The position numbers were made by a program, and so were the translations under genes. Positions 2,110 through 45,301 of a stretch of 64,000 nt of DNA are shown piece after piece. Below the pieces are notes generated by a model. That model was not told the origin of the DNA. It saw nothing but the letters and a program-made list of their open reading frames with translations, and did no database searches. Source of the stretch: Cellulosimicrobium cellulans (GTDB lineage: Bacteria; Actinomycetota; Actinomycetes; Actinomycetales; Cellulomonadaceae); assembly GCF_024124905.1 (NCBI RefSeq), contig NZ_JAMXST010000003.1, positions 124,001-188,000 of the forward strand, given 5' to 3'. Numbering within the stretch: position 1 is the first letter of the stretch; every line of letters starts with the position of its first letter.

Positions 2110-2168
2110 TCGAGAATGCCTCGCTGCTTCTCCGGGCCCGGCCACTGCGGCGGGTCGTGACGAAAACG

Positions 2169-2277: not shown

Positions 2278-2290
2278 TAGGGTTGGAGGG
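2278..2290 (+). promoter_or_regulatory. Likely leaderless promoter of the first MFS gene
   Basis: TAGGGT (2278-2283) fits the actinobacterial -10 pattern TAnnnT and lies 6 bases before the GTG start at 2290. A purine-rich GGAGG is present but abuts the start codon, too close for a normal ribosome binding site. A leaderless transcript is the simplest reading. Confidence 0.4.
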
Positions 2291-3942: not shown

Positions 3943-5481
3943 GTGACAGCCTCCCCCACCCATGACACCTCGGCACCCGTCGACCGGCTACCCCGGGCGG
4001 ACTTCCTCGTCATCGCGCTGCTGCTGGGCTCCGCGTTCGTCGTGATCCTCAACGAGACGACCATGAGCGTCGCGCTGGCGCCGCTCATGGCCGACCTCGG
4101 CATCACGGCCAGCACGGGTCAGTGGCTCACGACGGCGTTCATGCTGACGATGGCCGTCGTCATCCCGGCGACCGGCTTCCTGCTGCAGCGCCTGGGGACC
4201 CGCGGCGCCTACCTGCTCGCGATGTCGCTGTTCAGTGCGGGCACGCTGCTCGCCGCCGTCTCCCCCGGGTTCGCGTGGCTGCTGGTCGGCCGCGTCGTGC
4301 AGGCGTCGGGCACGGCGATCATGATGCCGCTGCTCATGACGACGATCATGACCCTCGTCCCACCGACGATCCGCGGCAAGGTCATGGGCAACATCTCGAT
4401 CGTCATGGCCGCCGCGCCCGCGCTCGGCCCGTCGCTCTCGGGCCTCATCCTCAACTCCCTGAGCTGGCGGTGGGTGTTCGGGATCGTGCTCCCGATCGCG
4501 CTCGTCGCGCTCGTCCTCGGCTTCCTGTACATCCGGGACGTCGCCGACCGTACGCACTCGCGCCTCGACCCGTTCTCGCTGGTCCTCGCGGCGTTCGCGT
4601 TCGGCGGCCTGGTCTACGGGCTGTCGAGCATCGGCGAGGCCGCGCGCCACACCCCGGTCGTCCCGCCGGCGGTGCCCATCGCGTTCGGGGCCCTCGCGCT
4701 CGGCGCGTTCGTGTGGCGCCAGATCGTGCTGCAGCGCGAGGACCGCGCGCTCCTCGACCTCCGCGTGTTCACGCACCGTGGGTTCAGCGTGCCCCTCGGC
4801 ATCATGGCGGTCGGCATGGTCGCCATGTTCGGCTCTCTCATCCTCCTGCCGCTGTTCCTGCAGGACGCGATGGGCCTCGAGCCGCTCGCGACCGGCCTCA
4901 TCGTGCTCCCGGGCGGGCTCCTCATGGGTCTGCTCGGCCCGACCGTCGGCCGGCTCTACGACCGGGTGGGACCGCGTCCGCTCGTCATCCCCGGCGTGAG
5001 CGTCGTCGCCGTCGCCCTCGCGGCGTTCACGACGATCCACGCGAGCTCGTCGCCGTGGTTCGTCCTCGCGCTGCACGTCACGCTGAGCCTGGGCCTCGCG
5101 TTCATGTTCACGCCGCTGTTCACGTCCGCGCTCTCGGCGCTCGAGCCGCACCAGTACTCGCACGGGTCCGCGTCGATCGGCACCGTGCAGCAGCTCGCGG
5201 GCGCCGCCGGCACGGCCATGTTCGTCGCCGTCATGACGACCCGCTCCATCGCCTACGGCGAGGCGGGCGCGTCACCGCAGGCGGCGCTCGCCGAGGGCGT
5301 CGGCGACGCGTTCGTCTGGGGCACGGCCGTCATGCTCGTGGCCGTGGGCCTCTCGTTCCTCCTGCGCCGCCCCGCGCCGCAGGACCACGGCCCGGGCCAC
5401 GGCCCCGCGCAGGACCGGACGCAGGACGCACCGGTCGACGACGTCAAGGTCGAAGCCGCACTGGCCACCGACGACGTCTGA
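3943..5481 (+). CDS. DHA2-family MFS multidrug exporter
   Basis: The product is 512 residues from GTG 3943 with about 14 predicted membrane helices. ILNETTMSVALAPLMADLG in helix 1 and QWLTTAFMLTMAVVIPATGF in helix 2 match the EmrB/QacA 14-helix drug:H+ antiporters. The start is placed at GTG 3943 because GGAG at 3931-3934 is correctly spaced and the hydrophobic protein begins soon after. A longer frame from 3760 is open but compositionally odd. The C-terminal tail after about residue 480 is hydrophilic and acidic. It probably exports drugs or toxic lipids; substrate unknown. Transcription meets the CCA gene at the 5520-5574 hairpin. Confidence 0.85.
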   Translation: MTASPTHDTSAPVDRLPRADFLVIALLLGSAFVVILNETTMSVALAPLMADLGITASTGQWLTTAFMLTMAVVIPATGFLLQRLGTRGAYLLAMSLFSAGTLLAAVSPGFAWLLVGRVVQASGTAIMMPLLMTTIMTLVPPTIRGKVMGNISIVMAAAPALGPSLSGLILNSLSWRWVFGIVLPIALVALVLGFLYIRDVADRTHSRLDPFSLVLAAFAFGGLVYGLSSIGEAARHTPVVPPAVPIAFGALALGAFVWRQIVLQREDRALLDLRVFTHRGFSVPLGIMAVGMVAMFGSLILLPLFLQDAMGLEPLATGLIVLPGGLLMGLLGPTVGRLYDRVGPRPLVIPGVSVVAVALAAFTTIHASSSPWFVLALHVTLSLGLAFMFTPLFTSALSALEPHQYSHGSASIGTVQQLAGAAGTAMFVAVMTTRSIAYGEAGASPQAALAEGVGDAFVWGTAVMLVAVGLSFLLRRPAPQDHGPGHGPAQDRTQDAPVDDVKVEAALATDDV

Positions 5482-5519
5482 ACCGTCACCGCGGCGTCGA
5501 CCACGACGTCATGCGCCCT

Positions 5520-5574
5520 CGAACACGACATGGGTGCCGTTATCAGCCCGATAACGGCACCCATGTCGTGTTCG
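5520..5574. terminator. Perfect 25-bp inverted repeat between convergent genes
   Basis: A 25-base arm (5520-5544, starting CGAACACGACATGGG) is perfectly complementary to 5550-5574 around a 5-nt loop. It sits between the MFS gene (plus) and the CCA gene (minus). There is no U tract. The arm is longer and less GC-rich than the other terminators in this window, so it could be a dispersed palindromic element used as a bidirectional terminator. Confidence 0.65.
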
Positions 5575-5592
5575 GCCCAGCGCAGACCAACC

Positions 5593-7116
5593 TCAGGAAG
5601 TCGACGACTCCGGTTGGTTGGCCCACCAGGCCAGGAGGTCCGCGCGCGCGGTCTCCTCGTCGACCGGCCCGCGGTCGAGACGGAGCTCCAGCAGGTGCTT
5701 GTACGCCTTCCCCACCACCGGTCCCGGCCGGATGCCGAGGATCGCCATGATCTGCTGGCCGTCGAGGTCCGGGCGGACGGCGTCGAGCTCCTCCTTCTCC
5801 TGGAGGGCGGCGATGCGGCGCTCGAGGTCGTCGTACGACTCGCGCAGCCGCTGCGCCTTGCGCCGGTTCCGTGTGGTGCAGTCGGCGCGCGTGAGGCGGT
5901 GCAGCCGCTCGAGCAGCGGGCCGGCGTCGGTCACGTAGCGGCGCACGGCGGAGTCGGTCCAGGCGCCGTCGCCGTACCCGTGGAAGCGCAGGTGCAGCTC
6001 GACGAGCCGTGCGACGTCCTTGACGACCTGCTTGTCGTAGCGCAGGGCCTTGAGGCGCTTGGCGACCATCTTGGCCCCGACGACCTCGTGGTGGTGGAAG
6101 CTCACGCCGCCCCCCGGCTCGAAGCGCCGCGTCGGCGGCTTGCCGACGTCGTGCAGCAGCGCCGCGAGGCGGAGCACGAGGTCGGGGGCCGGGACCGCGC
6201 CGTCAGGCCCGGTCTCCTGGGCGATCGCCTGGTCGAGCACCGTGAGCGAGTGCTCGTAGACGTCCTTGTGCCGGTGGTGCTCGTCGATCTCGAGCTTGAG
6301 CGCGGGCAGCTCGGGCAGCACGTGGTCGGCGAGGCCGGTGTCCACGAGCACCTCGAGCCCGCGGCGCGGCGACGCCGCGCACAGCAGCTTCGAGAGCTCG
6401 TCCCGCACGCGCTCGGCGGACACGATCTCGATGCGCTCGGTCATGAGGACGAGCGCGGCGAGCGTCCCGCCGTCGACGTCGAACCCCAGCTGGGCCGCGA
6501 AGCGCGCGGCGCGCATCATGCGCAGCGGGTCGTCGTCGAACGACCGCTCGGGGGCGATCGGCGTGCGCAGCACGCGGCGCGCGAGGTCGTCGAGGCCGTC
6601 GAAGGGGTCGACGAACGTCATCTCCGGCACCCGGACCGCCATCGCGTTGACGGTGAAGTCCCGGCGCGACAGGTCTCCCTCGAGCGTGTCGCCGAACGCG
6701 ACGGCCGGCTTGCGCGACGTCGGGTCGTACTCGTCCGTGCGGTACGTCGTCACCTCGACGACGAGGTCGTCGGCGGCTCCCCCCCGGCCGAACCGCTTGG
6801 CGCCGATCGTGCCGAACTCCTTGCCGATGTCCCAGTGCGCGTCGCCCCAGCGCGCGAGGAGCGCCTCGGTCTCGTCGGGCGACGCGGACGTGGCGAAGTC
6901 GAGGTCGTTGCTCGCCCGTCCGAGGAACGCGTCGCGGACGGGTCCGCCGACGAGCGCGAGCTCGTGACCGGCGGCGCGGAACGCCTCGCCGAGCTCGATC
7001 GCCGCGGGTGCCATCTCGGTGAGGACGGCGAGGGCGCGGCGCTGCAGGTCGAGCGACTGCGGCGTCGGCTGAGATGCCGGCGGGGGCGACGGCTGGGACG
7101 ACGAAGGCTGGGGCAC
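5593..7116 (-). CDS. cca: CCA tRNA nucleotidyltransferase
   Basis: The product is 507 residues. The nucleotidyltransferase head has the class II signature LVGGPVRD at 56-62 and catalytic DLD at 71-73. A central RNA-binding region and an HD domain (LLHDVGKP, about residue 320) follow, as in actinobacterial CCA-adding enzymes. It adds or repairs the 3' CCA end of tRNAs. The GTG start at 7116 is preferred: it opens a Pro/Ser/Gln-rich leader before the conserved fold. A much longer frame is open upstream but lies antisense to the NUDIX gene. Divergent from the NUDIX gene, with a short shared promoter region. The order cca-NUDIX-DUF6049-murJ is common in Actinobacteria. Confidence 0.9.
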   Translation of the reverse strand: MPQPSSSQPSPPPASQPTPQSLDLQRRALAVLTEMAPAAIELGEAFRAAGHELALVGGPVRDAFLGRASNDLDFATSASPDETEALLARWGDAHWDIGKEFGTIGAKRFGRGGAADDLVVEVTTYRTDEYDPTSRKPAVAFGDTLEGDLSRRDFTVNAMAVRVPEMTFVDPFDGLDDLARRVLRTPIAPERSFDDDPLRMMRAARFAAQLGFDVDGGTLAALVLMTERIEIVSAERVRDELSKLLCAASPRRGLEVLVDTGLADHVLPELPALKLEIDEHHRHKDVYEHSLTVLDQAIAQETGPDGAVPAPDLVLRLAALLHDVGKPPTRRFEPGGGVSFHHHEVVGAKMVAKRLKALRYDKQVVKDVARLVELHLRFHGYGDGAWTDSAVRRYVTDAGPLLERLHRLTRADCTTRNRRKAQRLRESYDDLERRIAALQEKEELDAVRPDLDGQQIMAILGIRPGPVVGKAYKHLLELRLDRGPVDEETARADLLAWWANQPESSTS

Positions 7117-7185
7117 GACACCCAAGCCTGCCAGATGCGAGGCCCGCACCGGGGAGCCGGTCCCGGGGAGCCGACGTCCACTCGG

Positions 7186-7200
7186 TAAAGTTGGGACATG
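7186..7200 (+). promoter_or_regulatory. Leaderless promoter of NUDIX gene
   Basis: TAAAGT at 7186-7191 is a good -10 hexamer, and the ATG follows after only 6 bases with no Shine-Dalgarno sequence. This is the classic layout of a leaderless actinobacterial mRNA. Confidence 0.5.
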
Positions 7201-7917
7201 TCCACCCCTGCGCACGCCGACGAGCCCCGGAGGGATCCGGCGGGCGGGCGTGGCAACGGTCGCGGGCAGCCCCTCCCGGTCCCCGCCCCGCCCGGCGGGC
7301 ACGCGCTGCGCATCGACCCGCGCTCGCGCCCGGCCCCCGCGCCCCCACCGCTGCCCGTGGTCGACGAGGTCTCGGCCGGCGGGCTCGTCGTCACGATCGC
7401 CGGCGGCGACGTGTGCGCGGCGATCATCGCGCGACGCAACCGGGGCGGACGCCTCGAGTGGTGCCTGCCCAAGGGTCACCTCGAGGGCGACGAGACGCCA
7501 GAGCAGGCCGCGGTCCGCGAGATCGCGGAGGAGACGGGCATCCACGGAGCGGTGCAGGAGCCGCTCGGCGTCATCGACTACTGGTTCACCGGCGACGACC
7601 GCCGCGTGCACAAGGTCGTCCACCACTTCCTCCTGCGCGCGACGGGCGGCTACCTCACGGTCGAGGGTGACCCGGACGGGGAGGCCGAGGACGTCGCGTG
7701 GATCCCCGTGGCGGACCTGCCCGACCGCCTCGCCTACCCGAACGAGCGCAGGATCGCCGCCGTCGCGCAGAGCGTCCTGGAGGGCAGGCCGGCGCGGTTC
7801 CACGGGGTGGTCGAGAGTAGGGTGACCCGGACGATCGTCCGCTCGCCCGGCCGTCCGCACGACGGCCGCGGCGGCCAGGCACCGCCCGCCCCACGGAGCT
7901 CGACCGACCACTCATGA
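7198..7917 (+). CDS. NUDIX hydrolase
   Basis: The product is 239 residues. A complete NUDIX box runs from Gly93 to Ile115 (GHLEGDE, then REIAEETGI), giving the metal-binding Glu residues for hydrolysis of a nucleoside diphosphate linked to another group. The first 50 residues are Pro/Arg-rich and probably disordered, and the C-terminal 40 are also low complexity. The KVVHHFLLRATGG segment is usual for the MutT-like proteins found next to murJ in Actinobacteria. Substrate unknown. The stop overlaps the next start (ATGA at 7914-7917), so it is translationally coupled to the DUF6049 gene. Confidence 0.85.
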   Translation: MSTPAHADEPRRDPAGGRGNGRGQPLPVPAPPGGHALRIDPRSRPAPAPPPLPVVDEVSAGGLVVTIAGGDVCAAIIARRNRGGRLEWCLPKGHLEGDETPEQAAVREIAEETGIHGAVQEPLGVIDYWFTGDDRRVHKVVHHFLLRATGGYLTVEGDPDGEAEDVAWIPVADLPDRLAYPNERRIAAVAQSVLEGRPARFHGVVESRVTRTIVRSPGRPHDGRGGQAPPAPRSSTDHS

Positions 7918-10220
7918 CGCCCTCCCCCAGCAGCGGCGCGCGCCCCGCAGGCGCCGCGTCGGTCCCGCTCCTCGGCAGGTCCGCTCGGCTCCTCGTCGCC
8001 CTGGTCGTCCTCCTGGTCCTGACCGTCGGCGTCGTGCTCGGCGGATCCCTCACCGCGGCGGGCGCGGCCGCCGGGACGACGGCGACCACCGCCACGGAGA
8101 CCGAGGACGCGGTGACGCTCGAGGTGTCGTCGCTGCAGCCGACCGTCCTCGGCCCGGGCGCCACGCTCACCGTCACCGCGCGCGTGACCAACGGGACCGC
8201 GGAGACGCTCGGGTCGCCGGAGGTGGCGCTCGGCATCGACCGGCGCGTGCTGAGCACCCGGTCGGCTCTCGAGAGCTGGGCCACGACCGGGCCCGACGGC
8301 CGCGTCGGCGTCGGCGTCACGACCCAGGACCTCGGAGCACCGCTCGCACCGGGCGCGAGCGCGGACGTGACGCTCACGGTCCCGGTCGCGGAGCTCAACC
8401 TGAACGCCGGCAGCGACTGGGGCCCGCGCGGCATCTCCCTCACGGTGTCCGACGGCGGCGCACGCCTGGCCGTGCAGCGCACCTTCGTCCTCTGGGAGCC
8501 GTCGAGCGAGGTGACGCCGCTGCGCCTGAGCGTGGTCGCCGCCATGACCGGTCCGCCGGTGGACCCGGACCCCCAGGCGTACGACGACGCGCTCTCCACC
8601 GCGACGGGGACGGACGGTCGCCTCGGGCGGCTGCTCGCGGCGACCGGCGGGGCGCCGGAGGTCGCGTGGGTCGCCGACCCGGCCCTGCTCGCCGCGGCGA
8701 CGGGCGCGACCGACCCGGCGGTGAACGCCTGGGCCGACGCCGTGGGTGCCGCCGCCGCGGGCCGGTCCACGTTCGCCCTGCGCGCCTACGACCCGGACGT
8801 CGCGGCGTTCGCGCACGCGGGACTCGCGCTGCCGGAGGGGACCCCGCTCCCCACCGACCCGACGACCGACGGGCCGTCGCCCGACGACGCGACGGCAGAC
8901 GGCACGACGACGGACGACGCGACGGCAGGCGACACGGCCGGCACGGACGAGGTGGCCGACGGCGCGGACGCTTCCACCACCGGCCTGACCGCCGGGTGGC
9001 GGACCGACCTCGCCTGGCCGGGCGACGCCGTCCCCGACCTGGCCACGACGACGCTCGCCGCGGCGTCGGGCGCGACCGCGACGGTCGTCGGTCCCGGCGG
9101 GCTCGTCCCGGACGAGTCGCTGACGTACACGCCCTCCGGGGTCGCCGACGTGTCGACCGCCGCCGGGCCCGTGAAGGCGCTCGTCGCCGACCCGGTGCTC
9201 ACCGCCCTGCTGTCCGCCGGTGACGGCTCGGGGGTCACGGCGACGCAGCGGATCCTCGCCGAGACCGCGGTGATCGCCCGCGAGCGGCCGGCCGAGCAGC
9301 GCCACGTCCTCGTCGCGCTGCCCCGGAGCTGGGAGGCCGAGCCGGCCGTCTTCACGGCACGGCTCGACGCCCTCCGGGCCGCCCCGTGGGTCGACCTGGC
9401 CCCCGTGGACGACCTCCTCGCGGCCGCGCCGCCCGCGGTCGAGCGCGCGCCGCTCCCGGACTCCGGCGCGTCCGAGGGCGAGATCACCGTCGCCCAGCTC
9501 CGCGCTCTCGACCGGTCGCGCACCGACCTCGCCGCGTTCGCGACGGTCGCCACCGACCCCGCGACGATCACACGGCCGCTCGAGCCCGGCTTCGTGACGC
9601 CGACCGCCGTCGCGTTCCGTGCCGCGCAACCGTCGCGCGTGCTCGCCGTCCAGCACGCCGAGCAGCAGTCCGCCGCCGTCCGGGGCACGCTCTCCGTGGA
9701 GACGCGCACCCCGTTCCTCTTCGTGGCCGAGCAGGAGGACCTCCCGGTCCGGGTGCGCAGCACCCTGGCGCAGGACGCGACCGTCGAGGTCGTGCTCCGG
9801 CCCGACGATCCGCGGCTGCGCGCCCCGGAGCGCAGGACGGTGACGATCCCGGCGGCCACGCGGGACGCCGACGGCGACCTGGTCGCGACCGAGACGAGCG
9901 TCGGCGTGCCCGTCGAGGGGTTCGGGAGCGGGAACGTCACGGTGGAGGTCGAGCTCGTCAGCGCGGCGCAGCCCCAGGTCCGCGTCGCGGAGCCGCAGGA
10001 GTTCGTCGTGCGCGTCCGAGCGGACTGGGAGTCGGTCGGTACGGTGGTGGTGGCCGTGCTCCTGGCTCTCGCCCTGGTCGCGGGGATCTGGCGCACCGTG
10101 CGGCGCGGCCGCTCGCCCCGCCGTCTGGCGGGCGCCACCGTGGACCAGCCGGCACCGCCCGCGCAGGACCCGGCGCCGGCAGCGCAGCCCGGCCGGCGGG
10201 ACGAGGAGCGCGTCGAGTGA
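7914..10220 (+). CDS. DUF6049 family membrane-anchored extracytoplasmic protein
   Basis: The product is 768 residues. A hydrophobic segment at about 24-52 acts as a signal/anchor. A large extracytoplasmic region follows, and a second helix lies near the C-terminus (VGTVVVAVLLALALVAGIW) before a basic cytoplasmic tail. The order of domains and the position directly before murJ match the DUF6049 proteins of Actinobacteria, whose function is not established. A Thr/Asp-rich linker (about 325-355) is locally repetitive (TTDDATAGD-like units). It overlaps NUDIX upstream and murJ downstream (GTGA at 10217-10220), so a role with the lipid II flippase is inferred from context only. Confidence 0.75.
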   Translation: MTPSPSSGARPAGAASVPLLGRSARLLVALVVLLVLTVGVVLGGSLTAAGAAAGTTATTATETEDAVTLEVSSLQPTVLGPGATLTVTARVTNGTAETLGSPEVALGIDRRVLSTRSALESWATTGPDGRVGVGVTTQDLGAPLAPGASADVTLTVPVAELNLNAGSDWGPRGISLTVSDGGARLAVQRTFVLWEPSSEVTPLRLSVVAAMTGPPVDPDPQAYDDALSTATGTDGRLGRLLAATGGAPEVAWVADPALLAAATGATDPAVNAWADAVGAAAAGRSTFALRAYDPDVAAFAHAGLALPEGTPLPTDPTTDGPSPDDATADGTTTDDATAGDTAGTDEVADGADASTTGLTAGWRTDLAWPGDAVPDLATTTLAAASGATATVVGPGGLVPDESLTYTPSGVADVSTAAGPVKALVADPVLTALLSAGDGSGVTATQRILAETAVIARERPAEQRHVLVALPRSWEAEPAVFTARLDALRAAPWVDLAPVDDLLAAAPPAVERAPLPDSGASEGEITVAQLRALDRSRTDLAAFATVATDPATITRPLEPGFVTPTAVAFRAAQPSRVLAVQHAEQQSAAVRGTLSVETRTPFLFVAEQEDLPVRVRSTLAQDATVEVVLRPDDPRLRAPERRTVTIPAATRDADGDLVATETSVGVPVEGFGSGNVTVEVELVSAAQPQVRVAEPQEFVVRVRADWESVGTVVVAVLLALALVAGIWRTVRRGRSPRRLAGATVDQPAPPAQDPAPAAQPGRRDEERVE

Positions 10221-15788: not shown

Positions 15789-17117
15789 GTGACTGGACCG
15801 ACGACTCCCCCGCAGCAGCCCGCTCCCGGCGGCACCCGCCTCGACCCGTGGTTCGGTGCCTACGCAGAGCGAGCGCACGGGATGCGAGCGTCGGAGATCC
15901 GGGCGCTGTTCGCCGTGGCGAACCGCCCCGAGGTCGTGTCGCTCGCCGGCGGGATGCCGTACCTCGAAGGACTCCCGCTCGACCAGATCGCCGACACCAT
16001 GCAGCGGCTCGTCGCGACGCGCGGCGCGACCGCGCTCCAGTACGGGTCCGGGCAGGGCGACGAGACGCTCCGCGAGCAGATCCTCGACGTGGTCCGGCTC
16101 GAGGGGATCGAGTGCCACCCCGACGACGTGGTCGTGACGACGGGCTCGCAGCAGGCCCTGGACCTCGTGACCCGGATCTTCGTCGACCCCGGTGACGTCG
16201 TCGTCGCCGAGGCACCGAGCTACGTCGGCGCCCTCGGCGTGTTCCGGTCGTACCAGGCCGACGTCGTACACGTGCCCCTCGACGAGCACGGCCTCGTCCC
16301 CGAGGCGCTGGAGGAGACGCTCGCCCGTCTCGCCGCCGACGGCCGACGCGTCAAGCTGCTCTACACCGTGCCCAACTTCCACAACCCTGCCGGTGTGACC
16401 CTCACCGCGGAGCGCCGCCCGCGCATCCTGGAGATCGCGCAGCGCTACGGCGTCCTCGTCATCGAGGACAACCCCTACGGGCTCCTCGGCTTCGACGGCC
16501 AGACGCTCCCCGCGCTGCGGTCGCTCGACGAGGACGGCGTCCTCTATCTCGGGTCCTTCTCCAAGACCTTCGCCCCCGGGTACCGGGTCGGCTGGGTGGT
16601 CGCGCCGCACGCGGTGCGCGAGAAGCTCGTGCTCGCGAGCGAGTCGGCGATCCTGTGCCCCTCCAACGCGTCACAGCTCGCGATCGCCGCCTACCTCGAC
16701 ACGTGCGACTGGAAGGGCCAGATCAAGCAGTTCCGCGAGCTCTACCGGGAGCGGCGCGACGCGATGATCGGTGCGCTCTCGGAGCATCTCCCGTCGGCCC
16801 GCTGGACCGTCCCGGACGGTGGCTTCTACACGTGGGTGCAGCTCCCCGAGGGCCTCGACGCCCGATCGATGCTGCCGCGCGCCGTGACGGCCCGCGTCGC
16901 CTACGTCCCCGGCACGGCGTTCTACGCGGACGGCACGGGCTCGAGCCACGTGCGCCTCTCGTACTGCTTCCCGACCCCCGAGCGGATCCGTGAGGGAGTT
17001 CGGCGCCTCGCCGGCGTCGTCAACGCCGAGCAGGAGCTCGTCGAGATCTTCGGGACGAACGCCGAGCTCGACCCTGACGTCACGGACGTCGAGAACCCGT
17101 CGCCCGACCTGGCCTGA
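15789..17117 (+). CDS. PLP-dependent class I/II aminotransferase
   Basis: The product is 442 residues. SLAGGMPY, TTGSQQALDL, PNFHNPAG and the pyridoxal lysine in GSFSKTFAPGYRVGW (around residue 259) identify the family of 2-aminoadipate/aromatic/branched-chain-type aminotransferases. There is no N-terminal GntR domain, so it is not a MocR regulator. The exact amino donor is not readable. GTG 15789 is chosen because GACACT (15776-15781) sits 7 bases upstream as a -10 hexamer with no ribosome binding site, suggesting another leaderless mRNA. An ATG at 15765 is in frame but would include the promoter. The Ddl-like gene follows 69 bases later. Confidence 0.85.
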   Translation: MTGPTTPPQQPAPGGTRLDPWFGAYAERAHGMRASEIRALFAVANRPEVVSLAGGMPYLEGLPLDQIADTMQRLVATRGATALQYGSGQGDETLREQILDVVRLEGIECHPDDVVVTTGSQQALDLVTRIFVDPGDVVVAEAPSYVGALGVFRSYQADVVHVPLDEHGLVPEALEETLARLAADGRRVKLLYTVPNFHNPAGVTLTAERRPRILEIAQRYGVLVIEDNPYGLLGFDGQTLPALRSLDEDGVLYLGSFSKTFAPGYRVGWVVAPHAVREKLVLASESAILCPSNASQLAIAAYLDTCDWKGQIKQFRELYRERRDAMIGALSEHLPSARWTVPDGGFYTWVQLPEGLDARSMLPRAVTARVAYVPGTAFYADGTGSSHVRLSYCFPTPERIREGVRRLAGVVNAEQELVEIFGTNAELDPDVTDVENPSPDLA

Positions 17118-17186
17118 AGCTCTTACACCACGACGCCGAGCGGACCCTACCGGGCGACGCCGGCACCGAACAGGAGTCCGTCAACA

Positions 17187-18242
17187 GTGGACACGACCAC
17201 GAGCACCCCGACGACGGCGGACGAGGCCGGTGGCGCGGCCGAGACCGACGCGCAACGCCCTGACCAGCACCTTCGCCTTCTCCGGCCCGATGACGAGGTG
17301 CCCGCGGGCAACCACGTGGTCATTCTCGCGGGCGGGCTGTCCCACGAGCGCGACGTCTCGTTGCGGTCCGGACGCCGCGTCGCCGAGAGCCTGCGCGCTG
17401 CCGGCCTCGAGGTGACGGTCCACGACGTCGACGCGGACCTCCTCCCGTTCCTCGATGCGACCCGCCCTGATGTCGTGTGGCCGCTCCTGCACGGCGCGAG
17501 CGGCGAGGACGGCTCCATCCGCGACGTGCTCGAGCTCGTCGGCGTGCCCTACGTGGGGACCGGACCGCGGGAGAGCCGCTCGGCGTGGAGCAAGCCCGTC
17601 GCGAAGAGCGTCGTGCTCGGCGCGGGCCTGTGCACGCCCGAGTACGTGACCCTCCCCCAGAGCCTCTTCCGCGAGCTCGGCGCCCAGCCCGTCCTGGACG
17701 CGGTCGTGGCCCGGCTCGGCCTCCCCCTCGTCGTCAAGCCGACCCATGGCGGTTCGGCGCTCGGTGTCACCCTGGTCGAGCGAGCGGACCAGCTCCCGCG
17801 CGCCATGGTCGACTGCTTCGCCTACGGGGACGTCGCCCTGATCGAGCGCGCGGTGCGTGGCGTCGAGCTCGCGGTCAGCGTCGTCGACGTCGGCACCGGT
17901 CCCGAAGCGCTGCCCCCGGTCGAGATCGTCACGACGGGCACGTACGACTTCGACGCGCGGTACAACCCCGGGCGGACCGAGTACTTCGCCCCCGCACGTC
18001 TGGACGACGACGTGCTGGACATCGTCCGCGAGGTCGCGGTGCGTGCGCACGCCGCGCTCGGGCTGCGCGACCTCTCCCGCACGGACGTCATCCTCGACCC
18101 CGACGGAGTGGTGCAGTTCCTCGAGGTCAACGTCGCACCGGGCATGACCGAGACGTCGCTCCTCCCCCAGGCCGCGCGTGCCGCCGGCCTCGATCTGGGT
18201 CACCTCTACCGCTCGCTCGTCCACACCCACGTGCGCCGCTGA
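17187..18242 (+). CDS. D-alanine--D-alanine ligase family protein (ATP-grasp)
   Basis: The product is 351 residues. VILAGGLSHERDVSLRSG is the Ddl N-terminal block; LLHGASGEDG, VVKPTHGGSALGV and FLEVNVAPGMTETSLLPQ are the ATP-grasp and substrate-loop motifs. The first ~38 residues are a hydrophilic leader. Members of this branch occur near parAB in Actinobacteria, and their substrate may not be strictly D-Ala-D-Ala. Start GTG 17187 follows AGGAG at an 11-base distance. It is the last intact gene before a 2.9-kb decayed segment. Confidence 0.85.
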   Translation: MDTTTSTPTTADEAGGAAETDAQRPDQHLRLLRPDDEVPAGNHVVILAGGLSHERDVSLRSGRRVAESLRAAGLEVTVHDVDADLLPFLDATRPDVVWPLLHGASGEDGSIRDVLELVGVPYVGTGPRESRSAWSKPVAKSVVLGAGLCTPEYVTLPQSLFRELGAQPVLDAVVARLGLPLVVKPTHGGSALGVTLVERADQLPRAMVDCFAYGDVALIERAVRGVELAVSVVDVGTGPEALPPVEIVTTGTYDFDARYNPGRTEYFAPARLDDDVLDIVREVAVRAHAALGLRDLSRTDVILDPDGVVQFLEVNVAPGMTETSLLPQAARAAGLDLGHLYRSLVHTHVRR

Positions 18243-18279
18243 GCGTCCTCGACCGCCCCGTGCGCCCCGTGCGCCCCGT

Positions 18280-36089: not shown

Positions 36090-36627
36090 GAGGTGAGGGT
36101 CCCTTCGGAGTGAGGCCGCCCGCACGCGGATCACTCCTGCGCGGACGACGCGCGAATCATGATGGTGTGTGGTATTAGACCACTTTCAGCGCGAAATGCC
36201 GATTCCCGACTTGTCCCGAAGGGAGCGTTCCCACACCCCGGCCGTAAGAGCGTTCCGCCAGGGCTCCGGCGGCCGTGCGGGGGCATCGCTCCCCCCGGTG
36301 GACAAAGGCTGTGGACAACTGTGTGGAGGAATCTCGACGGCGACGCGCGGATCACGTCGGGAATGCCGGTTCAGCCGCCCCCAGGAGGGCCACAATCCGC
36401 GGAATTCGGCTCGTGGCGGGTAGACTGGGGAGGTCATTCCGGGTCTGTTCACCACCCGTGCGCGCAGCCCTTCCGAGGAGGTGCGGCCGGCCGTCCACGG
36501 CCGGTCGTCCCCCGTGGCGGAGGAGCCGACGTCGACCGTGGTACGGGCCCGGAACCCTTGAGCAGCGGCGACCGCTTCCGCACGAACGCGGGCGCAGCGT
36601 GCACGACGACGAGGAGCAGTCCTGCCC
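36090..36627. promoter_or_regulatory. Divergent promoter region, surface protein gene / gyrB
   Basis: 538 bp without a gene. GTGGT-ATTAG-ACCAC (36169-36183) is a perfect 5+5 inverted repeat near the surface gene; it resembles GntR-family sites but has one base more than the DasR consensus. TGTGGACAA (36310-36318) is a perfect DnaA box, and the following TGTGTGGAGG is a weak one. TAGACT (36421-36426) is a good -10 for gyrB, though no matching -35 was seen. Confidence 0.5.
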
Positions 36628-38724
36628 GTGGCAGACCACACCGACACCGCCATCTCCGACCCGACGGCGTCCGCGGAGGCGGCACCCTCGGCGGACGGCG
36701 GCTACGACGCGAGCAACATCACCGTCCTCGAGGGCCTCGAGGCGGTCCGCAAGCGTCCGGGCATGTACATCGGCTCGACCGGCGAGCGGGGCCTCCACCA
36801 CCTTGTGTACGAGATTGTGGATAACTCTGTGGACGAGGCCCTCGCCGGGCACGCGGACACGATCGACGTGACGCTCCTGGCCGACGGCGGCGTCCGCGTC
36901 GTCGACAACGGCCGCGGCATCCCCGTCGCGATCCACCCGACCGAGGGCAAGCCGACGCTCGAGGTCGTCATGACGATCCTCCACGCGGGCGGCAAGTTCG
37001 GTGGCGGCGGGTACGCCGTCTCCGGCGGTCTGCACGGCGTCGGCATGTCCGTCGTCAACGCGCTCTCGACGCGCATGGTGTCCGAGGTCCGTCGCGACGG
37101 GTACTCGTGGCGCCAGGAGTTCACCGAGGGCGGCAACCCGGTGACGCCCGTCGAGCGGCTCGAGCCGTCGGACGAGACGGGCACCACGCAGACGTTCTGG
37201 GCCGACCCGGAGATCTTCGAGACGACCGAGTACGACTTCGAGACCCTGCGGGCCCGCTTCCAGCAGATGGCCTTCCTCAACAAGGGCCTGCGCATCACGC
37301 TGACGGACGAGCGTCCCGCCCACCTCGACACGGGTGACGAGGTCACCGGCGGCGACGGCGCGGCCGACGCGGACGGCGTCTCCGAGGCGGACGACGCGAC
37401 CCCGGGCGCGTCCACGCCTGCTCGCACCGTCTCGTACAAGTACGACGGCGGCCTCGTGGACTACGTCACCCACCTCAACGCGGCGAAGAAGGTCGAGCTC
37501 GTCCACCCCGACGTCATCGACTTCGAGTCGGAGGACACCGAGAAGCGCATCTCCGTGGAGATCGCGATGCAGTGGACCAGCTCGTACTCCGAGTCCGTCC
37601 ACACGTACGCGAACACGATCTCCACGACGGAGGGCGGCACGCACGAGGAGGGCTTCCGCGCGGCGATGACCTCGCTGGTCAACCGGTACGCGCGCGACAA
37701 GGGCATCCTCAAGGAGAAGGACGACAACCTCACGGGCGACGACATCCGCGAAGGCCTGACCGCCGTCGTCTCCGTCAAGCTCGGCGAGCCCCAGTTCGAG
37801 GGCCAGACCAAGACGAAGCTCGGCAACACCGAGGCGAAGACGTTCGTCCAGCGCGTCGTCCACGAGCAGCTCACGGACTGGTTCGACTCGCACCCGAACG
37901 AGGGGCGCGACGTCATCCGCAAGGCGATCCAGGCGTCGCAGGCGCGGCTCGCCGCCCGCAAGGCGCGCGAGGCGACCCGGCGCAAGGGCCTGCTGGAGTC
38001 GGGCGGCATGCCCGGCAAGCTGCGCGACTGCCAGTCGAACCGCGCCGAGGAGTGCGAGATCTTCATCGTCGAGGGCGACTCCGCCGGTGGTTCCGCCGTC
38101 CGCGGTCGCAACCCGCGGACGCAGGCGATCCTCCCGATCCGCGGCAAGATCCTCAACGTCGAGCGCGCGCGCCTCGACCGGGCCCTGTCCAACCAGGAGG
38201 TCCAGTCGATCATCACCGCGTTCGGCACGGGCATCGGCGAGGACTTCGACCTCACCAAGCTCCGCTACCACAAGATCGTGCTCATGGCCGACGCCGACGT
38301 CGACGGCCAGCACATCGCGACGCTCCTGCTCACGCTGCTCTTCCGGTACATGCGCCCCCTCATCGAGAACGGGCACGTGTACCTCGCACAGCCGCCGCTG
38401 TACCGGCTCAAGTGGTCGAACGCCCCGCACGACTACGTCTACTCGGACAAGGAGCGCGACGCGTTCCTCGCGTCCGGGCAGGCCGCGGGCAAGCGGATCC
38501 CCAAGGAGAACGGGATCCAGCGCTACAAGGGTCTGGGCGAGATGGACTACTCGGAGCTGTGGGACACGACCATGGACCCGGAGCACCGCACGCTCAACCA
38601 GGTCACCCTGGACGACGCCGCGGCCGCGGACGAGATCTTCTCCGTCCTCATGGGCGAGGACGTCGAGTCCCGCCGCAGCTTCATCCAGCGCAACGCGAAG
38701 GACGTGCGGTTCCTTGACATCTGA
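36628..38724 (+). CDS. gyrB: DNA gyrase subunit B
   Basis: The product is 698 residues. [20 protein letters not shown] and [14 protein letters not shown] form the GHKL ATP site. [19 protein letters not shown] is the lid. The TOPRIM motifs EGDSAGGSA and [10 protein letters not shown] follow, and the C-terminus is complete. With GyrA it introduces negative supercoils. An acidic low-complexity insert (about 233-270, [15 protein letters not shown]) breaks the transducer domain. GTG 36628 follows GAGGAGCAG. Two DnaA-box sequences lie in the coding region at 36816-36836, written with codons (ATT, GAT, TCT) otherwise avoided in this gene. Confidence 0.97.
36816..36836. promoter_or_regulatory. Two DnaA boxes inside the gyrB coding sequence
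   Basis: TGTGGATAA (36816-36824, perfect) and TGTGGACGA (36828-36836, one mismatch) are in the same orientation with a 12-base period, as in oriC (29778-29796 shows nearly the same pair). They encode IVDNSVDE, a conserved GyrB motif. Confidence 0.6.
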
Positions 38725-38847
38725 GCAGCCGGTGCCCGCGCCCCGCGGGCGACCGGCCCTCGGACGCGCCCCGGCGTCGTCCGCGGCAGACACAGAGCCA
38801 GCCACCGAGCGCAGCGAGCACGCAGAGACGAACGAGCGAGGTAGACC

Positions 38848-41543
<2,696 letters not shown>

Positions 41544-41547
<4 letters not shown>

Positions 41548-42485
41548 GCAGCGAGAACAACGCACCGCCGACGATCACGCCCCGGCTGACCGTGCCGCGT
41601 CCCGACACGGACCCGGCCTCGCGCGCCGGGGGTGCGCCCGCGCCGAGCAAGCACGGGGAGTCGAACGGCGCGTCGAACGGTGCGGCGTCGGGCGCCGTCC
41701 CGCCGCCTCCCCCGCCCCCGCCGCCGGGCCAGTCTGCGGGCCGGGCCCCGAGCCAGGCCGCCCCGGAGCGCGGGGTCGACGACGACGGCATGGAGCGCGC
41801 GTCCGGCGAGAGTCGCGTCGCGGTCGCCCGCGCCGGCGCCGTGAAGGCTGCCGCCGCGGCCATCGCCGCGGCGAAGAGCGCGGCCAAGAAGGTCTCGGCG
41901 GCGGTCCCGGCCGCTCCCGCGGAGACCGACCCCCAGCCCGGCCACGACGAGATCGACGACGAGACGGTGAGGCGCGTGCCCACGACCAGCGCGGCAGCGC
42001 CGAGCGCCCCAGCGGCGTCCACGAACACCCCGGCGCCGGCGGCGATGCACTACTCCGCCGCGGGCGTCTCCGGATCGGCGACCCCCCTCACCGGTGCGAC
42101 GCCCACGGTGCGGCACGACGGCGGCCCGCGCCGCGTCCGGCTCGCGGTCTCGCGCATCGACCCCTGGTCCGCGATGAAGCTCGGCTTCCTGCTCGCCGTC
42201 GCGATCGGCATCATGACGGTCGTCGCGACGGCCGTGGTCTGGTACGTCCTCGACGGGATGATGGTCTTCGCGAAGATCGAGGACCTGTTCACGCAGATCG
42301 TCGGGACCGAGACGGACGTGGACATCCAGCAGTACGTCGCGTTCGGGCGTGTGATCTCCATCGCCACGCTGCTCGGCGTGGTGAACGTGGTGATCATCAC
42401 CGCGCTCTCGACGATCATGGCGTTCCTGTACAACATCGTCGCCGCGCTGGTGGGCGGCGTGCACCTCACGCTCACCGACGACTGA
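41544..42485 (+). CDS. DUF3566 family membrane protein
   Basis: The product is 313 residues. The first ~190 are a disordered Pro/Ala/Ser-rich cytoplasmic region (run of Pro at about 53-61, an Ala/Lys helix near 95-120). The C-terminal third holds [27 protein letters not shown] and a second membrane segment, the DUF3566 pattern. The family always follows gyrA in Actinobacteria (the CwsA-like neighbourhood); function unknown. Translationally coupled to gyrA. Confidence 0.85.
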
Positions 42486-42871: not shown

Positions 42872-42944
42872 GGGGCCATGGCGCAATTGGTAGCGCACCT
42901 GCTTTGCAAGCAGGGGGTTGGGGGTTCGAGTCCCCCTGGCTCCA
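42872..42944 (+). tRNA. trnA: tRNA-Ala (anticodon TGC)
   Basis: 73 nt. Acceptor GGGGCCA pairs with TGGCTCC (42937-42943, one G-T wobble). Anticodon arm CCTGC/GCAGG encloses TTTGCAA with anticodon TGC. CCA is not encoded. Confidence 0.97.
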
Positions 42945-42951
42945 CTCCGTC

Positions 42952-42990
42952 GACCAGCATCGAGAACTTCGATGCTGGTCGTCTTCGTCT
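42952..42990 (+). terminator. Terminator after tRNA-Ala
   Basis: GACCAGCATCGA (42952-42963) pairs perfectly with 42969-42980 over a 5-nt loop, followed by a T-rich tract. Confidence 0.8.
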
Positions 42991-43065
42991 GACACCTCTC
43001 TTCGCGAGTGCGCGGCTCCGGCGCGTGCGGCGTGCTCCTCGATGGCGTCGTGGCAAGCTCTCGAC

Positions 43066-44058
43066 GTGGAGAAGCTCGGCCGGCGGCGCGCATGGTTGCT
43101 CATGGCCGCGGGAGAGAACCGCGGCCACGGTGGTCATTCGGGCTACGACGATCAGTACGACGCGTACTACTCCTGGGACAGCAACGTGCCCAACCACAAG
43201 AACCTTCGGGTGGGCGACCCGATCGCCCTGTGGGACAAGGTGCGCCTCCTCGGCATCTCGGTCATCGAGCAGATCGACACCTCACCGGGCCAGAAGGTGC
43301 TCAACAGGTGCCCGGAGTGCGGGACGACGCGAATCTCCCTCCGCAAGAGGGCTACGCCGCGCTATCGGTGCATGAAGTGCGGTGCAGCGTTCGAGGCTGC
43401 GAGAGCCGACGTCGCCGAGGTCGAGCTCTACACGGCCCGGTACGACGCTGCGTGGACCTCGCTCGAGGGAGTCCTGGACGAGCACGAGGTCCGCGCGGTC
43501 CAGACGAATGCCGTGGACATCAACGCGATGCGTCCGTTGGACTGGGACGCGTTCCGCGACGCGCTCGCCCGCAAGGACGCCGACCGTGCCCTGAGCCGCG
43601 TGCAGGGCCGACTCCCGGATGCCGTGTGGAGCGACGGCGCGGGTGTGACGCTGGAGCTCTCGGGTGGGTTTCGCCGTTCGCTCGTGCGCGTCAGACGCGG
43701 GCAACGTCAGTTCCGGGCGCATCTCCTGTCGAGCCAGGGAAGCACCTGCGCGTTCACCGGCGGTGCGCCGGAACGAGTCCTCGACGCGGGACACCTCTAC
43801 AGCTATGCGCGGCTCGGCGAGCACCACGCGCACGGTGGGCTCATGCTTCGCCGTGATATCCACAGGCTGTTCGACGACGGGATGCTCGCCGTCGATCCCA
43901 CCACCCTGAGGATCGACGTCGACAGCGAGCTCGCGGCGTTCCCGCAGTACGCGTGCCTCGATGGCAGGCCGTTGCAGCTCGACCTCCGAGAACAGCAGGT
44001 CGACTGGCTCGGCAAGCACTGGGGCGAGCATCGTGCGACGGCCTCGAGGGCGCCGTAG
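43066..44058 (+). CDS. HNH nuclease with putative PUA/EVE-like reader and zinc ribbon
   Basis: The product is 330 residues from GTG 43066 (an ATG at 43042 is also in frame). Residues 8-70 (RRAWLLMAAGEN, YYSWDSNVPNH, RVGDPIALWD, LLGISVIEQI) follow the W/GD/W/GxxxI rhythm of EVE/PUA-like domains that read modified bases. Four cysteines at 82, 85, 102 and 105 form a zinc ribbon. The C-terminal HNH module runs from DAGHLYS (H243) to RRDIHRLFDDGM (H266), with His256 where Asn is common. No methyltransferase is near, so a stand-alone modification-dependent restriction nuclease is plausible but unproven. Third-position composition is a little more relaxed than in flanking genes. Confidence 0.6.
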   Translation: MEKLGRRRAWLLMAAGENRGHGGHSGYDDQYDAYYSWDSNVPNHKNLRVGDPIALWDKVRLLGISVIEQIDTSPGQKVLNRCPECGTTRISLRKRATPRYRCMKCGAAFEAARADVAEVELYTARYDAAWTSLEGVLDEHEVRAVQTNAVDINAMRPLDWDAFRDALARKDADRALSRVQGRLPDAVWSDGAGVTLELSGGFRRSLVRVRRGQRQFRAHLLSSQGSTCAFTGGAPERVLDAGHLYSYARLGEHHAHGGLMLRRDIHRLFDDGMLAVDPTTLRIDVDSELAAFPQYACLDGRPLQLDLREQQVDWLGKHWGEHRATASRAP

Positions 44059-44100
44059 GACACGCCACTCGGTGACCGGGAGCCCCATCGTCCCGAGACG

Positions 44101-44132
44101 ACGCCGGGCCCACCTTGCGGTGGGCCCGGCGT
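44101..44132. terminator. Bidirectional terminator, HNH gene / Ala-rich gene
   Basis: ACGCCGGGCCCACC (44101-44114) and its perfect complement 44119-44132 flank a TTGC loop, between convergent genes. Confidence 0.85.
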
Positions 44133-44167
44133 CGTGCGTGCGTGTCCAGCGTGCCGCTCTGGCGGGG

Positions 44168-45301
44168 TCAGACGTCGTCGGCCTTCTTGGCCGCGTCCTC
44201 CGCGGCGTCCTCGGCCGCCTCGCGGGCCTTCTTGGCGGCGTCGCCCAGGTCGTCCTTCGCGTCCGCGGCGGCGTCCTTGGCGGACGAGGCCGCGCTGCGG
44301 GTCGTGCTGCGGGCGCGGCTGGTGGCCTTCTTGGCCGCGTCCTTGGCGTCCGAGACGGCGTCGCTGACGCGGTCGCTGACGTCGTCGCGCACCTCGGCGG
44401 CGCGCTCGGCGAGCTTGTCAGTTGCCTCGCGGCCCTTCGCGACGGCGACGCCCGCGGCCTCGCCCAGCGACTCGGCGGCGTCCCCGACGGCGTGCCGGGC
44501 GTCGCCGACCACGTCGTCGAAGTGGACCTGCTGCTCCTCCTGCTCCCACGGCTCGGCCCAGGGGTCGGTCGTGGGCTGTGCGCGCCGGTAGAGGACGTAG
44601 CCGACGCCCGCGGCCGTGACGCCGCCAGCGATCCACCAGAGGGTGCGGCCCTTGCCCTTCGACGCGTCGGCCTCGGCGGCCTTCGCCGCGGCCTTGTCGG
44701 CTGCGGCAGCGAGCTTCGCCGCGGCCTTCTCGGCTGCCTTGTCGGCATGCTTCGCGGCCTTCTTGCCCGCCTTGCCCGCGGTCTTCTGCGCCTGCTTCGC
44801 CGCCTCCGCGGCGGCCTTCTGCGCCTCCTTGGCGAGCTTGCGGGCCTTCTTGCCGGTCGCCGCTGCCGTGGCCGCGGACGCGGCGGCGGTCGCCTCGGCC
44901 GCGTTGTCGGCCGCGCGCTGGGCGGAGTCGGCGGCGCTGGCGGCGGCGGCGTTGAAGCTGGCGACGATCTTGGGCAGCACCTCGTCGACGAGCTTGTCGT
45001 GCGCGGTGTCGATGGCGGGCGCGGCCTTGCCCGCCGCCTTCTCGACGCGCGGTGCGGCGGCCTGGATGCTGTCCTGCCACGCCTTCTCGACGCGCGGCTG
45101 GAGCCACTCGAGGAACGCCTCCACCTTGGGCGTCCCCCACTCCTTGGCCTGCACCGCGGCGTCCTTGGCCTGGTCGGCGAGCTGGCTCGCCGCGCTCTGC
45201 GCGGTCGCGGCGGCCTGCGCGGCCTGGTCCTTGAGCTTCTCGGTGTCGATCGACTCGAGCGTGTCCTTGACGGAGTCGCTCGCTGAGCGAGAACGGGTCA
45301 T
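44168..45301 (-). CDS. Ala/Lys-rich helical membrane-anchored protein
   Basis: The product is 377 residues, not assigned to a named family. It is dominated by long amphipathic Ala/Lys/Asp/Glu helices (AAQAAATAQSAASQLADQAK, KKAAKHADKAAEK) with one membrane helix in the middle (TLWWIAGGVTAAGVGYVLY, around residue 236). The first half is basic towards the membrane; the second half is acidic-basic with 11-residue-like periodicity reminiscent of LEA or apolipoprotein repeats. It may bind nucleic acid, lipid or the cell envelope; no function can be assigned. It diverges from the cyclophilin gene. Confidence 0.7.
   Translation of the reverse strand: MTRSRSASDSVKDTLESIDTEKLKDQAAQAAATAQSAASQLADQAKDAAVQAKEWGTPKVEAFLEWLQPRVEKAWQDSIQAAAPRVEKAAGKAAPAIDTAHDKLVDEVLPKIVASFNAAAASAADSAQRAADNAAEATAAASAATAAATGKKARKLAKEAQKAAAEAAKQAQKTAGKAGKKAAKHADKAAEKAAAKLAAAADKAAAKAAEADASKGKGRTLWWIAGGVTAAGVGYVLYRRAQPTTDPWAEPWEQEEQQVHFDDVVGDARHAVGDAAESLGEAAGVAVAKGREATDKLAERAAEVRDDVSDRVSDAVSDAKDAAKKATSRARSTTRSAASSAKDAAADAKDDLGDAAKKAREAAEDAAEDAAKKADDV

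What the first reader, a model, noticed from the sequence alone, without database searches (positions are those of the whole stretch)
43066..44058. Solitary HNH nuclease with a putative base-reader domain and zinc ribbon
Seen: an N-terminal ~65-residue segment with the W...YSWD...GD.I.LWD...LGIS.I rhythm, four Cys as a zinc ribbon (82, 85, 102, 105), and a C-terminal HNH module (H243, H256, H266) in one 330-residue protein. Known: EVE/PUA-like and SRA domains fused to HNH nucleases form modification-dependent restriction enzymes. Inferred: this could be a stand-alone defence nuclease acting on modified phage DNA; no methyltransferase or partner gene is nearby. The third HNH residue is His instead of the common Asn.
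Basis: partly seen in the sequence, partly recalled or inferred. Interest (0 to 1): 0.6.

Follow-up and report, generated by a model that had tools for sequence, protein, structure and literature searches.

The report
Lone EVE-like zinc-ribbon HNH nuclease
A single bacterial gene, inserted beside a tRNA gene, encodes a predicted DNA-cutting enzyme with a built-in reader domain of the kind that senses chemically modified bases, so it is probably a small stand-alone anti-phage restriction enzyme.

Summary
The gene is real: window 43066-44058 (+), 330 aa, intact, with conserved relatives. AlphaFold models it well (pLDDT 85). VIA-align's 50 listed matches are EVE, ASCH, YTH, McrB-N and DrmA-N domains, headed by the EVE domain of the 5mC/5hmC-dependent endonuclease VcaM4I (Z 9.5); sequence comparison alone does not show this. 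The four-Cys zinc ribbon is inserted inside this domain.
The gene is a ~1.1-kb one-gene insertion between two hairpins downstream of tRNA-Ala. Within the genus that site is empty in nine genomes, holds a 65% relative in reverse orientation in one and a restriction-modification island in another. Relatives occur patchily in Actinobacteria, on plasmids, and in the defence hotspot of P2-like phages.
Best explanation: a solitary modification-dependent (type IV) restriction nuclease. The target base is unknown; broad 5mC targeting is not supported (18 of 26 carrier genomes also have an m5C methyltransferase match). A new variant of a known kind, with no activity data.

The parts
43066..44058 (+). 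gene for the 330-aa EVE-like / zinc-ribbon / HNH nuclease (GTG start fits the N-terminal length of relatives)
   Evidence: codon-position divergence
43084..43614 (+). residues 7-183: PUA-superfamily, EVE-like predicted reader domain
   Evidence: AlphaFold mean pLDDT 85, pTM 0.77 for residues 1-190, with 1-4 and 20-24 under 50; VIA-align top rows VcaM4I EVE Z 9.5, rmsd 3.0, 122 aligned; DrmA N-term; Atu2648; PH1033; MJECL36; ASCH; YTH
43303..43401 (+). zinc ribbon (residues 80-112; Cys82, 85, 102, 105) inserted between strands 69-81 and 113-125 of the reader domain
   Evidence: strand positions; weak zinc-ribbon hits below cut-off; C82, C85, C102 in 49 of 49 rows, C105 in 44 of 49
43672..44031 (+). 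HNH (beta-beta-alpha-Me) nuclease domain, residues 203-322; H243 (43792-43794), G257 at the Asn position (43834-43836), H266 (43861-43863), D270 (43873-43875)
   Evidence: HNH_2 1.1e-7; 6yex 8.9e-6; hhalign to VcaM4I-like proteins, probability 97.5
42994..44088 (.). approximate limits of the single-gene insertion relative to the empty site of a same-genus genome (G113); no terminal repeats found
42872..42945 (+). tRNA-Ala(TGC), upstream edge of the variable site
42951..42981 (+). terminator-like hairpin after tRNA-Ala, kept in the empty site
44098..44135 (.). 17-bp perfect hairpin between the HNH gene and the convergent gene; a similar hairpin is in the empty site
44168..45301 (-). conserved convergent neighbour (Ala/Lys-rich protein, no family above cut-off), right edge of the variable site

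Best explanation
The gene encodes a solitary, NTP-independent, modification-dependent (type IV) restriction nuclease built like the EVE-HNH enzyme VcaM4I. The EVE-like N-terminal domain is expected to flip out and bind a modified base in invading DNA; the zinc ribbon inserted in that domain probably shapes the reading face or grips DNA. The C-terminal HNH domains, probably paired as in VcaM4I, then cut near the site using H243 as water activator and H266 plus D270 as metal ligands. The gene moves alone into variable spots (beside tRNA/tmRNA genes, on plasmids, in the P2-phage defence hotspot) and protects its host against phages with modified DNA. Shown here: gene, domain order, predicted fold, residue conservation, single-gene insertion and patchy distribution. 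Inferred: base flipping, dimerisation, cleavage, anti-phage function. Unknown: which base is read; general 5mC is the less likely choice.
For: HNH relation to VcaM4I. Reader fold; VcaM4I, the closest solved enzyme by HNH sequence, is also top or tied top by VIA-align of the N-domain. Catalytic residues H243, H266, D270 in 49 of 49 rows match VcaM4I H224, D250, D254, whose alanine exchanges drastically impair it (PMC7897488 section 21); there Asn241 is structural and its exchange mild, so Gly257 need not abolish activity. Zinc site: four Cys in 44 of 49 rows; in the 3 phage rows probably Cys-Cys-Cys-His. Solitary: 44 of 49 rows show no m5C methyltransferase motif in the fetched flanks, up to 8 kb. 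In 16 loci clustered (membership listed) no neighbour family is general: the shared ones are confined to two same-genus pairs (L010/L014, L007/L011), a generic ABC ATPase (4 loci), an m5C methyltransferase (2), a SIR2 protein (2) and an antisense frame (3). Mobile and defence-like: clean insertion; inverted relative and an R-M island at the same site; 26 of 221 family genomes, in 12 of 25 genera; SEN8 relative between gpQ and gpA, the antiviral hotspot of P2-like phages (PMC9122126 passages).
Against: No sequence-level link of the N-domain to EVE: profile search of PDB found nothing, and hhalign to VcaM4I-like proteins gave probability 2%. Foldseek itself gives no match at E <= 0.001 for either model (best 1.7e-3 and 0.15, VcaM4I first both times), and its lists mix ASCH and DrmA with unrelated proteins such as mitoribosomal ones at similar E. 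Z 9.5 is only moderately above the 7-8 typical of models without a clear match (note), and VIA-align re-scores Foldseek's own candidates. Residues of VcaM4I's base pocket (P24, W82, Y130) could not be aligned. An m5C methyltransferase is the close neighbour in 5 of 49 rows, or 6 counting one beside a broken copy, so some members might be part of R-M pairs. In two near-identical distant rows (G050, G070) the fourth Cys is Asp. The HNH half of the AlphaFold model is poor. No activity data.
Confidence: 0.72

Rival explanations
1. It is an ordinary type II restriction endonuclease whose cognate m5C methyltransferase sits nearby or elsewhere; the N-domain plus ribbon reads a sequence, not a modification.
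For: m5C methyltransferase motif 77-325 bp away in 4 rows and 1.8 kb away in a fifth, of 49; a rough expectation gives P ~2e-5. Related HNH_2 nucleases with other N-domains sit beside m5C methyltransferases, e.g. G119. A PADLOC type II HNH model hits the HNH half (PDLC03546, 5.7e-4).
Against: 44 of 49 rows lack the motif in the fetched flanks, and 8 of 26 carrier genomes have no PF00145 match at all; an unprotected sequence-specific enzyme should be lethal there. The methyltransferase neighbours differ in distance and orientation. Other methyltransferase classes (m6A, m4C) were not surveyed.
Confidence: 0.14
2. It is a free-standing homing-type endonuclease: a selfish gene that spreads by cutting empty sites near tRNA genes.
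For: Single-gene insertion without partners; tRNA/tmRNA within 250 bp in 7 of 49 rows, about 6 independent, against 5 of 291 distant ORFs in the fetched loci; two relatives at the same tRNA-Ala site in opposite orientations.
Against: 42 of 49 rows are not within 250 bp of a tRNA and contexts differ; in the window itself 3 of 43 ORFs lie that near a tRNA, so the enrichment is less sure than 5 of 291 suggests. The same tRNA-Ala site takes unrelated cargo, including an R-M island and biosynthetic genes, so it is a general insertion site. EVE-type readers fused to HNH are known or predicted restriction enzymes (PMC7897488, PMC7641849).
Confidence: 0.06
3. It is a nuclease of modified or damaged DNA with a housekeeping role (repair or DNA uptake control), not phage defence.
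For: EVE-like readers also occur outside defence systems (PMC7641849, title and passages seen).
Against: Patchy presence (26 of 221 genomes), different neighbours, decayed copies (G086, second copy of G048, G113, G195), and phage-hotspot and plasmid carriage.
Confidence: 0.05

Closest known systems
VcaM4I (EVE-HNH modification-dependent endonuclease, PDB 6yex)
   Same: Order reader-HNH, PUA-superfamily N-domain, matching catalytic residues, size (309 vs 330 aa), single gene (PMC7897488)
   Different: A zinc ribbon is inserted in the reader domain (the VcaM4I paper's main text has 0 mentions of zinc); Asn replaced by Gly257; last metal ligand His, not Asp; no significant N-domain sequence match; target base unknown
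EVE-HNH architecture class of Bell, Wolf and Koonin 2020 (PMC7641849)
   Same: Predicted EVE-type reader plus HNH in putative type IV restriction enzymes (section 9)
   Different: The main text mentions HNH once and 'ribbon' never; whether their census includes this family could not be checked (supplements not available)
SRA-HNH (TagI, ScoA3IV) and SBD-HNH/ScoMcrA enzymes
   Same: Modified-DNA reader fused to an HNH (search listings); the NCBIfam PT-DNA restriction model hits the HNH half weakly (E 0.015)
   Different: Different reader domain by name; the score, 14.4 bits, is far below that model's cut-off of 180
PHROG 21425 (phage protein of unknown function; SEN8 gp02)
   Same: Matched at 1.9e-27 over two stretches; SEN8 gp02 aligns over the whole length, with ribbon and HNH. 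That SEN8 gp02 belongs to this PHROG is inferred
   Different: Phage-borne, ~27% identity; keeps the HNH Asn; fourth zinc ligand probably His

Membership tests
EVE-HNH modification-dependent restriction endonuclease | N-terminal PUA-superfamily (EVE-like) domain | tested here: met
   Predicted fold only; Foldseek alone is weak and sequence comparison did not show it
EVE-HNH modification-dependent restriction endonuclease | EVE rather than YTH/ASCH subclass (extra strand next to strand 1, downstream of the core) | tested here: inconclusive
   Best EVE, ASCH, YTH and DrmA-N rows lie within ~2 Z of each other; strand pairing could not be inspected, no coordinates given
EVE-HNH modification-dependent restriction endonuclease | C-terminal HNH with first His, last metal ligand and the extra Asp | tested here: met
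   H243, H266, D270 in 49 of 49 rows, aligned to VcaM4I H224, D250, D254
EVE-HNH modification-dependent restriction endonuclease | Middle Asn of the HNH motif | tested here: not met
   Gly257 in 46 of 46 actinobacterial rows, Asn in the 3 phage rows. In VcaM4I this Asn is structural and its exchange mild, so it does not exclude function
EVE-HNH modification-dependent restriction endonuclease | Hydrophobic base pocket (VcaM4I P24, W82, Y130) | tested here: inconclusive
   hhalign aligned only 19 columns around the GD motif. By eye, the W82 loop falls where the ribbon is inserted; Y27, Y35, W/Y37 and D38 are conserved
EVE-HNH modification-dependent restriction endonuclease | Cleaves modified but not plain DNA | not testable with these tools
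   needs an enzyme assay
Type IV (solitary, no cognate methyltransferase) | Gene stands without a partner methyltransferase | tested here: inconclusive
   Window: housekeeping neighbours and no m5C motif within 8 kb; likewise 43 further of 49 rows in the flanks fetched; 8 of 26 carrier genomes lack PF00145. But 5 of 49 rows have one nearby, and m6A/m4C methyltransferases elsewhere in the genomes were not surveyed
Type II R-M pair with m5C methyltransferase | Linked cognate methyltransferase | tested here: not met
   Window: none within 8 kb. The genome's only PF00145 match is on another contig, covers profile positions 2-117 of 324 and is listed with one TGA inside; whether that gene works was not checked

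The most novel reading that the evidence does not exclude
The ribbon-inserted EVE-like domain is a distinct class of modified-base reader, with a pocket unlike VcaM4I's, tuned to a modification other than plain 5mC (for example 5hmC or a hypermodified base). It defines a family of one-gene mobile type IV nucleases shared between Actinobacteria, their plasmids and P2-like phages.
Probability: 0.35. Interest if true: 0.6.

Novelty: new variant of a known kind. Interest (0 to 1): 0.42.

Why it matters
It would extend EVE-HNH restriction enzymes to a ribbon-inserted reader with an Asn-less HNH, and to Actinobacteria. It would give a testable function to PHROG 21425 and to genes annotated only as 'HNH endonuclease'. 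Single-gene enzymes that read modified bases are also useful tools for mapping DNA modifications.

Tried and rejected
Rejected: ribbon as a separate linker domain (both models place it between two strands of the sheet domain). Transposon or integron cassette: no terminal inverted or flanking direct repeats at the insertion limits, no Rfam family at its cut-off other than the two tRNAs. Conserved operon partner: none general in 16 loci (crude gene caller). 5mC avoidance: predicted that carriers would lack m5C methyltransferases; found 18 of 26 with, against 108 of 195 non-carriers, Fisher P 0.21, wrong direction.

Led nowhere: viral-contig scans with A1, P0004 and P0003 found no relatives; profile search of PDB with the N-domain found nothing; hhalign of the N-domain to VcaM4I-like proteins was not significant; Foldseek against viral models gave no match at E <= 0.001, a 38-column match first and weak ASCH hits. 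Families absent from the fold lists (e.g. SRA) are not excluded. Left out of A1 and A3: L014, L015, L016 (broken or gapped). Left out of the 49 rows: broken or partial copies (L120, L121, L134, L135, L014-L016), duplicates, and most phage relatives (3 of them used). L147 was left out of A6 because its N-terminus differs.

Limits of counts: the 49 rows (a different set from the 49) include one same-species pair and one contig fetched twice; some rows are close relatives; several rows have flanks shorter than 8 kb. The m5C scan was a motif scan of my own; in G113 (broken copy) it missed a PF00145 gene that one search places ~1.1 kb away. The tRNA background (5 of 291) comes from distant ORFs of the fetched loci; the same call gives 3 of 43 for the window; its binomial used 6 of 46. 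The methyltransferase expectation rests on an assumed 1.5 genes per genome and 48 loci.

Full report
OBSERVATION. The frame 43066-44058 (+) encodes 330 aa. It is a selected gene: of the 26 genomes of the family with a close relative (E <= 1e-70), 25 have a full-length open copy (the exception is G086, broken), and against the nearest relative from another genus the three codon positions differ by 0.18, 0.15 and 0.46. Pfam HNH_2 matches at 1.1e-7; several zinc-ribbon models match weakly, below their cut-offs, around residues 80-112. PHROG 21425, of unknown function, matches at 1.9e-27 in two stretches.

ANATOMY. AlphaFold with 21 aligned sequences modelled residues ~10-183 mostly well and the HNH half poorly. 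Residues 1-190 alone with 25 sequences gave pLDDT 85 and pTM 0.77, with residues 1-4 and 20-24 under 50. In both models the Cys82-Cys105 ribbon lies between strand 69-81 and strand 113-125, so it is an insertion within the domain. VIA-align, which re-scores Foldseek's candidates, ranks the EVE domain of VcaM4I first (Z 9.5, rmsd 3.0, 122 residues), then DrmA N-terminus, Atu2648, PH1033, MJECL36, ASCH and YTH domains and McrB-N (similar, where DrmA and VcaM4I tie). The titles name ASCH, YTH, McrB and VcaM4I; that Atu2648, PH1033, MJECL36 and the Leishmania protein 2ar1 are EVE proteins is recalled. DrmA's N-domain is called EVE-like in PMC12458937 (passages). Foldseek alone is weak: no match at E <= 0.001, VcaM4I first at 1.7e-3 (full model) and 0.15 (domain), with unrelated proteins such as mitoribosomal ones close behind. 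Sequence profiles of the N-domain show no significant link. The assignment rests on predicted fold plus the shared HNH partner.

HNH. The best PDB relative is 6yex, VcaM4I (8.9e-6; alignment; hhalign to four VcaM4I-like proteins 97.5% over 118 columns; one of them matches 6yex over residues 2-309 at 1.8e-93). H243, H266 and D270 correspond to VcaM4I H224, D250 and D254; G257 corresponds to N241. PMC7897488 section 21 reports that alanine exchanges of H224, D250 and D254 drastically impair the enzyme, while N241 is thought structural and its exchange is mild. Across 49 family rows H243, H266 and D270 are invariant; position 257 is Gly in all 46 actinobacterial rows (3 of them on plasmids) and Asn in the 3 phage rows. 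The fourth Cys of the ribbon is missing in 5 rows: Asp in G050 and G070, and in the 3 phage rows a nearby Gly-His or Asn-His that may supply a His ligand (inference).

CONTEXT IN THE WINDOW. The gene lies between tRNA-Ala and a convergent conserved gene. Nearby are gyrB, gyrA and DUF3566 upstream and cyclophilin, rhomboid, CrgA, DUF881, sortase and glutamine amidotransferase genes downstream. Aligned with the same site in G113, it is an insertion of about 1.1 kb (42994-44088) between two hairpins that have counterparts in the empty site. The site in 17 genomes of the genus: the gene in G000 and G116; an intact relative of 65% identity in opposite orientation plus an AAA_14/DUF4143 gene in G121; an island with Z1/MzaC-like, m5C methyltransferase, HNH_2 and Vsr genes in G119; biosynthesis-like genes in G118 (by eye); other genes in G111, G114 and G123; and only 65-278 bases between the tRNA and the conserved gene's end in the other nine. 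The window's protein groups with G061 of another genus (support 98/92), not with G121 of its own genus, whose own place is unresolved. This fits horizontal transfer.

DISTRIBUTION. In the family, 26 of 221 genomes, from 12 of 25 genera, have a close relative (E <= 1e-70); 67 of 221 have any match, many only to the HNH part. Named carriers include Cellulomonas, Georgenia, Demequina, Oerskovia, Xylanimonas, Isoptericola, Ornithinimicrobium and Serinicoccus. Of 9 plasmid records where one place covers 80% of the query (1 Paenarthrobacter, 8 Rhodococcus), the 3 read carry extra N-terminal residues or domains. Salmonella phage SEN8 and several viral contigs carry full-length relatives. In SEN8 the gene lies beside cos between gpQ and gpA, the hotspot described for antiviral genes in P2-like phages (PMC9122126 passages). 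Of 13 viral contigs compared with SEN8's proteins, 4 have an open copy directly beside gpQ (L050, L051, L053, L055) and L093 a broken one; 7 show no SEN8-like gpQ in the stretch held and L054 has one about 450 bases away. 12 of 5426 E. coli genomes carry the SEN8-type gene, with two annotated features under the match in all 12 (one inspected).

METHYLTRANSFERASES. In 5 of 49 rows an m5C methyltransferase motif lies within 2 kb (G169 325 bp, G215 105 bp, Serinicoccus 131 bp, G018 77 bp, G081 1.8 kb); a sixth, beside the broken copy of G113, was missed by the motif but found by Pfam. In 44 rows the motif scan finds none in the fetched flanks. Of the 26 close-relative genomes 18 have a PF00145 match and 8 do not; of the 195 others 108 do (Fisher P 0.21). 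So the enzyme does not need an m5C methyltransferase and is not excluded by one. This argues against broad 5mC cleavage and against an obligate m5C R-M pair, and leaves 5hmC, other modifications or a restricted context. VcaM4I itself cut 5hmC DNA faster than 5mC DNA (passage).

INTERPRETATION. The best reading is a solitary modification-dependent nuclease of the EVE-HNH kind with a ribbon-inserted reader. What works as in VcaM4I: reader plus HNH, matching catalytic residues, one gene. What differs: the inserted ribbon, the missing Asn, a pocket that does not align, and a different host range. No paper describing this architecture showed up in the listings of the searches made (zinc ribbon, HNH, EVE, PUA, restriction, at least 4 of 5 terms, 12 of 41 papers listed; EVE-HNH, all 10 papers listed). 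Lutz et al. 2019, a main screen of such enzymes, was not in the listing and was not read, so prior mention there is not excluded.

PAPERS. PMC7897488: abstract, outline, sections 18 and 21, passages. PMC7641849: passages and section 9. PMC9122126, PMC12458937, PMC12707154: passages. PMC12923530: abstract and outline (a GIY-YIG enzyme, a different kind). All others: search listings only.

Noticed in passing
L139 (G119:C1:52500-72324), reverse strand 1756-9975: At the same tRNA-Ala site in a same-genus genome lies an R-M island: Z1/MzaC-like protein, a PD-Lambda-5_A-like protein, m5C methyltransferase, HNH_2 nuclease and Vsr.
   Followed up: partly
L140 (G121:C1:457000-476869), 16941-18260 (-): AAA_14/DUF4143 ATPase (PADLOC candidate PDC-S01) between the inverted HNH relative and the conserved convergent gene.
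   Followed up: partly
L008:7032-8717 and L012:9090-10745: A SIR2-type protein (the L008 one SIR2_2, ThsA-like) lies next to or near the HNH gene in two genera; a possible defence neighbour.
   Followed up: partly
L088, L089, L090, L092, L095: Viral contigs carry related HNH nucleases with quite different N-terminal parts, possibly other DNA readers.
   Followed up: no
G035, G102, G009, G034, G143, G072, G119: Distant HNH_2 relatives lie within ~1 kb of a PF00145 methyltransferase in these genomes (coordinates), suggesting a set of HNH type II R-M pairs.
   Followed up: no
L048:7710-8948, L049:7707-8924, L047:7716-8954: Plasmid versions carry additional N-terminal sequence (about 95 residues in Rhodococcus; annotated helix-turn-helix in Paenarthrobacter). 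The Rhodococcus one tested, P0004, has no Pfam match there.
   Followed up: no
L146:224-634 and L149:1-365: VcaM4I-like genes on two plasmids (Sphingomonas, Priestia) have a (deoxy)nucleoside triphosphate pyrophosphohydrolase as neighbour.
   Followed up: no
L151:4487-5460 (E. coli LA3): The SEN8-type gene has two annotated features under it in all 12 E. coli genomes that carry it and looks broken in the one inspected.
   Followed up: partly
G000:C2:359975-360328: The window genome's only m5C methyltransferase match is partial and listed with one TGA inside; the other genome of the species (G116) has no match.
   Followed up: no
L126, L128 (G050, G070): Two near-identical distant relatives have Asp in place of the ribbon's fourth Cys.
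   Followed up: no
window 36352-41565 (-): A 1737-codon open frame antisense to the gyrase genes; probably a high-GC artefact.
   Followed up: no
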